In this document: in pieces, positions 12,685-34,492 of the stretch
Position numbering within the stretch: the stretch's first letter is position 1
Layout of the letters: each line of letters begins with the position of its first letter
Position numbers and translations under genes: made by a program
NCBI GenBank assembly: GCA_958296125.1
Contig: OY282444.1
Span: 3,009,623 to 3,073,622 of the forward strand
Length of the DNA: 64,000 nt
Direction: 5' to 3'
From: an uncultured Poribacteria bacterium
GTDB lineage: Bacteria; Poribacteria; WGA-4E; PCPOR2b
The notes under the pieces: generated by a model
Databases searched by the model: none
Seen by the model: only the letters and a program-made list of their open reading frames with translations
Told to the model about the DNA's origin: nothing

Positions 12685-13299
12685 CTAGCCTTTTGCAGCA
12701 GCGTAACGTCTGGCGACCTCTTCCCAATTGATAACGTTCCCCCACGCTTCAATATAAGCGGGGCGGAGGTTTTGATATTTCAAATAATACGCATGTTCCC
12801 ACACATCAAGACCCAGTATCGGTGTATGGCCCTGCATGATGGGGCTATCTTGGTTAGCAGTCGAGTAGATCTGCAAATCACCATTTTCATCAACAACCAC
12901 CCATGCCCAGCCAGATCCGAAGCGGGTCGTCGCGGCTGTCACAAACTGTTCTGTGGCAGCCTCGCAAGATCCAAAAGCGGAGTTGATCGCATCGTCTATT
13001 TCTCCTGTGGGTTCGCCGCCACCGTTGGGTCCCATTATGGTCCAGAAGAATGAATGGTTGGCATGTCCGCCGCCATTATTGATAACAGCTTGCCGCTTGG
13101 CTTCCGGCACCTGGTCGATATTACGCAGCAAGTCTTCGACCGACAGGGCTGCCAAATCATCAAGTCCTTCAAGGGCAGTGTTAAGATTAGTGATGTAAGC
13201 CTGATGGTGTTTTCCATGATGGATCTGCATCGTTTGCTCGTCAATATACGGTTCTAAAGCGTTATGAGCATACGGCAGGTCGGGGAGTGTATGTGCCAT
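12685..13299 (-). CDS. sodA: Superoxide dismutase (Mn/Fe family)
   Basis: 204 residues from the ATG at 13299, with AAGGAGG eight bases upstream; the longer frame to 13365 is not needed. Converts superoxide to oxygen and peroxide, cytosolic. Metal ligands are visible in the order H (MQIHHGKHH), H (HANHSFFW), D and H ([13 protein letters not shown]). [10 protein letters not shown] and NQDSPIM favour the manganese subtype. A sigma70-like promoter lies upstream at 13398-13426, with the MITE-like element beyond it. Confidence 0.97.
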
Positions 13300-13397
13300 G
13301 AGGATTTGCCTCCTTAGGAATTCCTTTAATTTTGAAGTTGATAAGCTAACACTAACTAAGCACATAAGTGCTAAACATATAGTCCTTAAACCACTTT

Positions 13398-13426
13398 ATT
13401 ATAACACATAGAGCAATCAAAGCCAA
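13398..13426 (-). promoter_or_regulatory. Sigma70-type promoter of sodA
   Basis: Minus strand TTGGCT (13421-13426), 17-base spacer, TATAAT (13398-13403), about 100 bases before the sodA ATG. Confidence 0.65.
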
Positions 13427-13429
13427 GCG

Positions 13430-13537
13430 ATTTTTATCATAGGGCTATTTAGTTTTCGATTTTCTCTCTGTCTGAGCGGTGTGTTGGGATTCGGAAATCT
13501 CTCCTACAGAAGAACTAAATGCCCCTAATTTTTATCA
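13430..13537. mobile_element. 88-bp MITE-like element with 10-bp target duplication (copy 1)
   Basis: Element 13440-13527 starts TAGGGCTATTTAGTTTTC and its other end, reverse-complemented, reads TAGGGGCATTTAGTTCTTC. It is flanked by identical ATTTTTATCA at 13430-13439 and 13528-13537. A second copy with the same termini but a different duplication lies at 34302-34454. It sits between the divergent promoters of sodA and guaA and encodes nothing. Confidence 0.85.
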
Positions 13538-13545
13538 ATGCTTGA

Positions 13546-13574
13546 TTGACCGTCCTGCTAATCTATGATACAAT
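13546..13574 (+). promoter_or_regulatory. Sigma70-type promoter of guaA
   Basis: TTGACC (13546-13551), 17-base spacer, TACAAT (13569-13574), 36 bases before the ATG at 13611. The -35 box is 19 bases from the end of the MITE-like element. Confidence 0.7.
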
Positions 13575-13610
13575 AAATTCACGACTTAATAGATGAAAAG
13601 GTTACGCACA

Positions 13611-15149
13611 ATGAAACGTGAAACCATAGTTGTTCTAGATTTCGGTTCGCAGTATACACAGTTAATCGCGCGGCGGATCCGTGAACACAAGGTGTACTGT
13701 GAGATCCATCCCTACAACATTCCGCTAAATCAGTTGGCATCCATGCAACCGAACGGTATCATCTTCTCTGGCGGCCCTGCAAGCGTCTACGCAACAGATG
13801 CGCCCCTGATCGATCCAAAAATTTTAACGCTCGGTGTGCCGATCCTCGGTATCTGTTACGGTATGCAGCTCATCGCGCGCCTCTCCGCCGGTGGAAAAGT
13901 GCACCCTGCCGTTGATCGCGAATTTGGTTCAGCAGAATTAACCGTAGATCTGCCGATTCCATTGTTTGCCGACCTGCCGAAGACGATAGATGTCTGGATG
14001 AGCCACGGCGACCGAATTGAGGTTCTGCCTGATAGATTTCACCCCGTTGCCCATACCCACAATTCCCCTATTGCAGCGATAGCGGATCTAGAGCAGGATA
14101 TCTACGGTTTGCAATTCCATCCGGAGGTTATCCACACGCGAGATGAGAACCGGCTGCTTGGCAATTTTGTCTATGAGATTTGTGATTGTAACGACCAATG
14201 GACGATGGAGTCCTTCATCGCGGAAGCGACAGAGAAGATTCGTATCGAAACAGGTGGTGCTCGCGTGTTATGCGCCGTGAGCGGGGGTGTCGATTCGACA
14301 GTGCTTGCGACGTTACTAAAACGTGCTGTCGGGGATGCACTGGTCTGCGTTTTTGTCAATAACGGCTTGTTGCGGAAAAATGAAGCAGATCAGGTGTTGT
14401 CAACTTTTCGAGAGCTCGGGATTGATGTTTATTATGTCGATGCTACTGACCGATTTCTCGAATATCTTTCAGGCGTTGAAAGCCCGGAGCAGAAGCGCAA
14501 AATCATCGGGAATCAGTTCATCGAAGTGTTCAAAGAAGAATCCGCACAAATTGGACAGATCGACTTCCTAGCGCAAGGAACGCTCTATCCTGATGTAATT
14601 GAGAGTGTGTCCGTCAAAGGACCATCAGCGACGATTAAGACGCACCATAATGTCGGTGGGCTTCCCGAAAATCTGCCGTTCAAATTGATCGAACCGCTGC
14701 GTGAACTGTTCAAAGACGAAGTGCGAGCGGTCGGGTCAGAACTGGACATCCCGAAATCGGTCTTGGGACGGCACCCGTTTCCGGGCCCCGGTTTAGCTGT
14801 CCGTATATTGGGACCAATCACGCAAGAACGTCTCGATATGCTGCGGGAGGCAGATGAAATCTTCATCGCAGAGCTACGGAAAGCGGGGCTATATGACGAA
14901 ATCTGGCAGGCGTTGACTGTGTTTCTGCCGGTTAAGAGTGTAGGCGTGATGGGCGACGAGCGTACCTACGAAAACGTTGTCGCGTTGCGAGCCGTGACGA
15001 GTACCGATGGCATGACAGCGGATTGGGCGAAGATTCCTCACAACGTATTGGGTGTTATTTCCAACCGCATCATCAATGAGGTACGTGGCATCAATCGTGT
15101 CGTTTACGATATTAGCTCAAAACCACCGAGTACAATTGAGTGGGAGTGA
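13611..15149 (+). CDS. guaA: GMP synthase (glutamine-hydrolysing)
   Basis: 512 residues from the ATG at 13611 (AAAGG about 11 bases upstream); an ATG 18 bases earlier is less likely. Converts XMP, ATP and glutamine to GMP. The N-terminal class-I glutaminase has its nucleophile Cys82 in GICYGMQ and its His-Glu in FHPEV. The ATP-pyrophosphatase domain has the P-loop SGGVDSTV. The C-terminal dimer domain ends in the usual PPSTIEWE. Monocistronic or read into the GH-like gene that starts 118 bases later. Confidence 0.98.
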
Positions 15150-34119: not shown

Positions 34120-34301
34120 TTTTAGATTCAAGAAAATTATAAACCTATCGAAAACATTTGTCAAGAGATTTTTCGCTGAAAAAACGCTAATAATTAGAAA
34201 TTATATCATGCGTTTTACATTTCCTCATGAAAAAATGAACGTTAGCAGTTCCGACATGATTTGGTCCCAATAGCGTCGCCGCCCCAGCGAGAGCATTGCG
34301 A

Positions 34302-34454
34302 ATTTCTGTAGGGCTATTTAGTTTTCGGTTTTTTGACCGATTTTGGCGGGTAATCCGTGCCAGCCCCGATTGCATCGGGCCTGCCCTCGGAACGGGGGAC
34401 GATCTATCGGGGAGACCAGGGACGGACCGAAGAATTAAATGACCCTAATTTCTG
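34302..34454. mobile_element. 139-bp MITE-like element with 7-bp target duplication (copy 2)
   Basis: Element 34309-34447 begins TAGGGCTATTTAGTTTTCGG; its other end, reverse-complemented, begins TAGGGTCATTTAATTCTTCGG. It is flanked by ATTTCTG at 34302-34308 and 34448-34454. Termini match the copy at 13440-13527 while the duplication differs, which supports real transposition. The interior contains CCCGAT...ATCGGG palindromes. The aldo/keto reductase promoter starts 17 bases past its end. Confidence 0.85.
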
Positions 34455-34463
34455 TGAATGGGG

Positions 34464-34492
34464 TTGACCTTATCAATGCCTTGTGATATACT
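34464..34492 (+). promoter_or_regulatory. Sigma70-type promoter of aldo/keto reductase
   Basis: TTGACC (34464-34469), 17-base spacer, TATACT (34487-34492), 67 bases before the ATG at 34559. Confidence 0.75.

What the first reader, a model, noticed from the sequence alone, without database searches (positions are those of the whole stretch)
13430..13537. MITE-like element with matching ends and 10-bp duplication between sodA and guaA promoters
The 88-bp element has about 19-base inverted ends (TAGGGCTATTTAGTTTTC / TAGGGGCATTTAGTTCTTC) and perfect ATTTTTATCA duplications. It sits between two divergent sigma70 promoters, whose -35 boxes lie about 15-20 bases outside the element. The pair of copies with unlike duplications (see 34302) supports an active family. 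Its insertion may have set the spacing or insulated the two promoters.
Basis: partly seen in the sequence, partly recalled or inferred. Interest (0 to 1): 0.72.

Follow-up and report, generated by a model that had tools for sequence, protein, structure and literature searches.

The report
Promoter-targeting ISAs1 mini-transposon between sodA and guaA
The 88-base repeat is a tiny non-autonomous jumping element of the ISAs1 family, and it and most relatives tested sit at a fixed distance (about 18 bases) upstream of gene promoters, so this transposon family seems to aim at the transcription start machinery; type element ISAs1 does not.

Summary
Window 13440-13527 is an 88-bp element with inverted ends and perfect 10-bp ATTTTTATCA duplications. 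Five congeneric genomes have the empty site with one target copy. The genome, from Candidatus Poribacteria, has 128 matching ends and at least 52 paired copies, and no intact transposase. The ends, TSD length and a transposase remnant place the parent in the ISAs1 family.

The unexpected result is where the copies sit. 79 of 155 ends have an outward sigma70 promoter whose -35 box starts 16-19 nt outside the element, against about 3 in any other 4-nt bin. Full-length ISAs1-family ISs of Poribacteria (15/15 and 13/18 copies) and of Ktedonobacter racemifer (14/18) show the same, typically at TSD + 8-9 nt. IS4-type elements in the same two genomes do not (3/24), nor does type ISAs1 of Aeromonas (0/7). 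Promoter-targeted insertion is known for TnGBS/ISLre2 and ISKra4 elements, which have Mutator-type transposases; I found no report for ISAs1. Recruitment by promoter-bound RNA polymerase is favoured but inferred.

The parts
13440..13527 (+). 88-bp non-autonomous element (MITE) of the ISAs1 family, L end on the left
13430..13439 (.). target-site duplication ATTTTTATCA, left copy
   Evidence: single copy in five congeners
13528..13537 (.). target-site duplication ATTTTTATCA, right copy
13440..13457 (+). L terminal inverted repeat TAGGGCTATTTAGTTTTC
13509..13527 (-). R terminal inverted repeat TAGGGGCATTTAGTTCTTC
13546..13574 (+). guaA sigma70 promoter TTGACC-17-TACAAT; its -35 box starts 18 nt from the element (10-nt TSD + 8 nt); the presumed target
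   Evidence: promoter also present at the empty sites of congeners
13398..13426 (-). sodA sigma70 promoter TTGGCT-17-TATAAT; its -35 box starts 13 nt from the element
13593..15149 (+). guaA (GMP synthase); likely start codon at 13611
12685..13365 (-). sodA (Fe/Mn superoxide dismutase) ORF; likely start codon near 13301
34309..34447 (+). second copy in the window (139 bp, subfamily A interior), between a nitroreductase and an aldo/keto reductase gene
   Evidence: empty site in five congeners
34301..34309 (.). TSD AATTTCTGT of the second copy, left (the last T is also the first base of TAGGG; 7-9 bp depending on how the terminal T/A is assigned)
34447..34455 (.). TSD AATTTCTGT of the second copy, right
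34464..34492 (+). sigma70 promoter TTGACC-17-TATACT, 16 nt outside the second copy, upstream of the aldo/keto reductase gene
   Evidence: conserved at the empty sites

Best explanation
The element is a MITE mobilised in the past by an ISAs1-family (DDE) transposase. That transposase, and most ISAs1-family members tested outside the Aeromonas type lineage, insert at a fixed place just upstream of sigma70 promoters. The promoter-proximal cut falls 8-9 bp before the -35 hexamer (about -45) and the distal cut 9-10 bp further out (about -54). The target-site duplication therefore keeps the promoter's own DNA intact to about -54. Shown here: family membership of the parent type, the TSD, the fixed distance, the presence of a -10 as well as a -35, use of either end, occurrence in Poribacteria and Chloroflexota (and probably alphaproteobacteria), and absence in two negative controls. 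Inferred: the transposase is guided by promoter-bound RNA polymerase holoenzyme (sigma region 4 or alpha-CTD), in the way proposed for TnGBS.
For: Position: of 155 ends, 79 (score >=8) have an outward promoter at 16-19 nt. Other 4-nt bins hold 0-9, the opposite strand 1, shuffled flanks a mean of 1.8; 88% (49/56) of the -35 boxes have a -10, against 6.6% of genomic TTGACA-like sites. 42/52 paired MITEs have at least one such flank, against 2.2% for random positions. Full-length ISs: Poribacteria G039 15/15, other Poribacteria 13/18, Ktedonobacter racemifer 14/18; offset minus TSD is 9 in 35 and 8 in 6 of these 42 hits. Single copies in Anaerolineales, Thermomicrobiales and Methylosinus agree. 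Same-genome control: IS4-type elements 3/24, no peak. Ends: both L (35) and R (44) face promoters. Promoters pre-date insertion: empty sites at both window copies. Family: NF033564 at 1e-61 to 1e-66; transposase C-terminus remnant inside a TAGGGTCATTTAGTTTTCG end in the own genome.
Against: No transposition assay and no RNA polymerase contact were tested. About a fifth of paired MITEs have no recognisable promoter at that distance; some may be old, or use a sigma factor the consensus misses. The type element ISAs1/ISAeme2 shows no targeting (0/7), so the property is not family-wide. Actinobacterial copies could not be scored with this consensus. Offsets in the own genome spread over 16-19 nt, wider than in the recent full-length ISs. 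Promoters were called by consensus, not by mapped transcripts.
Confidence: 0.82

Rival explanations
1. The transposase itself reads DNA at the promoter (the -35/-10 sequence, or the A/T-rich curved stretch upstream of -35) without RNA polymerase.
For: The distance is held to the -35 hexamer within 1 nt in recent copies, and positions -9 to -4 before the -35 are A/T-rich in the targets.
Against: 88% of the targeted -35 boxes have a correctly spaced -10, against 6.6% of TTGACA-like sites in the genome, and 59% carry a TGn extended -10. A sequence reader would need to read about 45 bp of degenerate promoter. The TSD itself has no visible consensus.
Confidence: 0.3
2. Insertion is random, and only copies just upstream of promoters survive selection.
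For: Insertions in genes or core promoters would be harmful, and MITEs are generally intergenic (general knowledge).
Against: Survival would allow the whole upstream region, but the peak is 2-4 nt wide. Recent copies with perfect TSDs show it most sharply (15/15 in G039). IS4-type elements in the same genomes do not.
Confidence: 0.05
3. The MITEs are domesticated regulatory parts (insulator, upstream activating element or terminator) kept at a fixed distance because they work there.
For: Fixed spacing; the insertion moved the sodA and guaA promoters apart from 21 to 119 bp; modest folding (z -1.7 and -2.9).
Against: Both ends face promoters about equally and interiors are highly variable. Congeners lack the copies. 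Full-length ISs with transposase genes show the same spacing. No terminator-like site.
Confidence: 0.07
4. The -35/-10 boxes are brought in or created by the element (hybrid promoter, as with ISs that carry an outward -35).
For: Many ISs make hybrid promoters (general knowledge).
Against: The boxes lie outside the element beyond the TSD, in sequence unique to each site, and are present at the empty sites of congeners.
Confidence: 0.01

Closest known systems
TnGBS integrative conjugative elements and ISLre2 family (p-MULT 3), Guerillot et al. 2014 (PMC3942029), citing Brochet et al. 2009
   Same: Insertion at a fixed distance (15-17 nt; TSD of p-MULT elements 8-9 bp) upstream of the -35 of sigmaA promoters; DDE transposase; recruitment by the RNA polymerase initiation complex proposed there.
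   Different: Mutator-superfamily transposases. ISAs1 transposases match NF033564/PF13808/PF01609 instead, have a 10-bp (9) TSD and an 18-19 nt offset, and use both ends, whereas most p-MULT 3 elements insert with IRr next to the promoter.
ISKra4 group (p-MULT 4), same paper; several from Ktedonobacter racemifer
   Same: Fixed-distance insertion upstream of promoters in both orientations, with near-symmetrical IRs.
   Different: Unrelated transposase family.
ISAs1 family sensu stricto (ISAs1, ISAeme2 of Aeromonas)
   Same: Same transposase family, CAGGG ends, 10-bp TSD.
   Different: No promoter at 18-19 nt in 7 sites, some inside genes.
Ty3 and other Pol III-targeting retrotransposons of yeast (PMC8632968)
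   Same: Works alike: integration in a narrow window upstream of transcription starts, harmless to the host gene.
   Different: Retrotransposon integrase guided by TFIIIB in a eukaryote; no homology claimed.

Membership tests
MITE | Short, no coding capacity, terminal inverted repeats, TSD, multicopy | tested here: met
   88 bp; IRs; 10-bp TSD; at least 52 paired copies
MITE | Empty orthologous sites with one target copy | tested here: met
   five congeners at each of two loci
MITE | Ends shared with an autonomous element | tested here: met
   ISAs1-family ISs in order-level relatives with (C/T)AGGG..ATT(T/C)A(G/A)TTTT ends; none intact in the own genome, and no autonomous copy with identical ends was found
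ISAs1 family (as non-autonomous member) | CAGGG-type ends | tested here: inconclusive
   ends are TAGGG rather than CAGGG; the rest resembles ISAs1-family ends of relatives
ISAs1 family (as non-autonomous member) | TSD of 8-10 bp | tested here: met
   9-10 bp in most clear cases
ISAs1 family (as non-autonomous member) | Transposase NF033564 / PF13808 + PF01609 | tested here: inconclusive
   met for full-length ISs of relatives; the own-genome remnant (69 aa, HWSIENKFHRVRDVVL) matches them at about 40-48% identity but is too short for the profile
TnGBS/ISLre2 or ISKra4 (p-MULT) | Mutator-type transposase | tested here: not met
   transposases match NF033564 ISAs1; no p-MULT or IS256 family among the hits
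TnGBS/ISLre2 or ISKra4 (p-MULT) | Insertion at fixed distance upstream of sigma70/sigmaA -35 | tested here: met
   works like it, is not a member

The most novel reading that the evidence does not exclude
A large part of the ISAs1 family is guided to promoters by contact between the transposase and RNA polymerase holoenzyme. This would have arisen independently of the Mutator-type TnGBS/ISLre2/ISKra4 elements, with nearly the same cut position. ISAs1 MITEs in uncultured bacteria would then be natural marks of promoters recognised by the host polymerase.
Probability: 0.5. Interest if true: 0.8.

Novelty: new variant of a known kind. Interest (0 to 1): 0.66.

Why it matters
Promoter-targeted transposition in bacteria has been described only for some Mutator-type transposases (PMC3942029), as far as the searched library shows. 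The same rule in an unrelated and widespread family suggests that aiming at RNA polymerase is a repeated solution for harmless insertion. It also makes the open question of what the transposase touches testable, with targeting and non-targeting members of one family to compare. Practically, the elements mark promoters in uncultured bacteria, and the family could be a tool for inserting DNA upstream of active promoters.

Tried and rejected
PF13808 in the own genome gave nothing, and NF033564 gave nothing in the own genome and only a trace in one congener, so the autonomous partner is absent or lost here. Terminator and folding tests did not support an insulating hairpin. ISPa60 plasmid hits share a single site (the same TSD) and cannot be used as independent insertions. 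ISKpn31, ISKpn9, cyanobacterial and Acidithiobacillus plasmid copies gave no convincing boundaries. Actinobacterial copies have no scorable promoter with this consensus. Literature searches for ISAs1 with promoter targeting found none; subscription papers are not held.

Full report
Observation. The ends occur in the window only as two pairs, here and at 34309-34447, where shuffles expect almost none. The window lies in a 5.16-Mb single-contig genome. There the end pattern has 128 matches against 0 for the reversed control, and the 88-bp element has 37 BLAST matches. Pairing the ends gave 52 short elements of 59-321 bp; the clearly matching flanks are mostly perfect 9-10 bp repeats that differ from copy to copy. 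The host is therefore very probably a poribacterium.

Empty sites. At sodA-guaA five genomes of the same genus have no element and a single target copy, with both divergent promoters conserved. The same holds for the 34309 copy, with the aldo/keto reductase promoter conserved. Both insertions are therefore absent from all five sampled congeners and hit promoters that already existed. The gap between the two -35 boxes went from 21 to 119 bp.

Parent. A lone end in the own genome (C1:2010543) is followed directly by the C-terminus of a transposase. A 69-aa piece of it matches ISAs1-family transposases in order-level relatives at roughly 40-48% identity. Those relatives carry full-length ISs of about 1.3 kb with ends such as CAGGGTCATTTAGTTTTA and 9-10 bp TSDs. 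Their transposases are NF033564, ISAs1 family, at 1e-61 to 1e-66, and the one scanned against Pfam has PF13808 and PF01609. The own genome and its genus have no intact copy. The MITEs are thus ISAs1-family derivatives whose helper is missing in this genome.

Where they insert. Scanning outward from the ends for sigma70 promoters gave a sharp peak: the -35 box starts 16-19 nt from the element, with the mode at 18. With a stricter score, 79 of 155 ends have this, against 0-9 in every other 4-nt bin, 1 on the opposite strand in the same stretch, and a mean of 1.8 after shuffling. 49 of 56 near-perfect -35 boxes have a -10, against 6.6% of TTGACA-like sites in the held sequence of the genome, and 47 of 79 have a TGn extended -10. 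Both ends face promoters (35 L, 44 R). 42 of 52 paired elements have at least one such promoter; random positions have it in 2.2%.

Full-length insertion sequences follow the same rule. In Poribacteria G039, 15 of 15 distinct copies with clear TSDs have the promoter, 13 at 19 nt and 2 at 18 nt. In other Poribacteria it is 13 of 18. In Ktedonobacter racemifer, a Chloroflexota species, it is 14 of 18 copies over several different ISs. Binomial p values against local background are 1e-11 to 1e-20. Over these 42 hits the offset minus the TSD length is 9 in 35, 8 in 6 and 7 in 1. The promoter-proximal cut is thus held 8-9 nt before the -35 box, while the TSD is 9 or 10. Single copies in Anaerolineales, Thermomicrobiales and Methylosinus agree. 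Azospirillum copies have TTG-starting -35 boxes at 17-18 nt but weaker -10 matches, so the alphaproteobacterial evidence is suggestive only.

Controls. IS4-type elements in the same two genomes give 3 of 24 and no peak at 18-19. The type element ISAs1 and its close relative ISAeme2 give 0 of 7, with several copies inside genes. A tree of 27 transposases splits into two large clades. Targeting members are found in both; the Aeromonas ISAs1 lineage does not target.

Mechanism. Random insertion followed by selection cannot explain a peak 2-4 nt wide that is sharpest in copies with perfect TSDs. Creation of the promoter by the element is excluded at two loci by the empty sites. Either the transposase is brought by promoter-bound RNA polymerase, or it reads promoter DNA itself. 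The strong demand for a -10 partner favours the first, but no experiment was possible. A model of cuts near -45 and -54 means that the duplication leaves the promoter's own DNA intact to about -54, which would spare the host gene.

Known or new. Guerillot et al. 2014 (PMC3942029) showed that TnGBS/ISLre2 and ISKra4 elements insert 15-17 nt upstream of -35 boxes and proposed contact with the RNA polymerase initiation complex. Those transposases are of the Mutator superfamily. The ISAs1 family is not mentioned in the passages read, and five literature searches in the held library found no report of ISAs1 promoter targeting. The finding is therefore a new variant of a known kind: the same insertion rule in an unrelated transposase family and in its MITEs. 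Absence from the library is not proof of absence from the literature.

Limits. Promoters were called by a consensus tuned on E. coli, and hosts with other promoters were not scored well. The score thresholds and the 16-19 window were chosen after seeing the first copies; the full-length ISs of relatives and of K. racemifer are the independent test. About a fifth of paired MITEs lack a recognisable promoter. The own genome was read only around the ends found by pattern, so the copy number is a lower bound. The insulation idea remains open: no terminator was found, the fold is modest, and no expression data exist.

Noticed in passing
L060 (C1:2010326-2010543): Remnant of an ISAs1-family transposase C-terminus directly inside a TAGGGTCATTTAGTTTTCG end, itself 19 nt from a TTGACT-17-TATAAT promoter; the only trace of the autonomous parent in this genome.
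   Followed up: partly
own genome, for example C1:2087448-2087768, C1:3658972-3659251, C1:4440664-4440936: Many longer MITEs carry inner C-rich repeats of the type CCCCCCTTAATCCCCCCGCAAGCGGGGGG in tandem, and interiors differ greatly while the ends stay; the interior seems modular or host to another repeat.
   Followed up: no
C1:2517684-2517837 (in L069): Chimeric MITE with two R-type ends, one of each subfamily, and a junction of the two interiors.
   Followed up: no
own genome, about 68 lone ends: Single ends without a partner, many still 16-19 nt from a promoter; likely decayed copies or solo ends.
   Followed up: partly
L297, L405-L411: Type ISAs1/ISAeme2 of Aeromonas lies inside or between genes with no promoter at the fixed distance, unlike the other lineages; a natural contrast for finding the targeting determinant.
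   Followed up: partly
Mycobacterium ulcerans plasmid hit H4: An ISAs1-family IS there would be a natural test of the rule in Actinomycetota; not examined.
   Followed up: no
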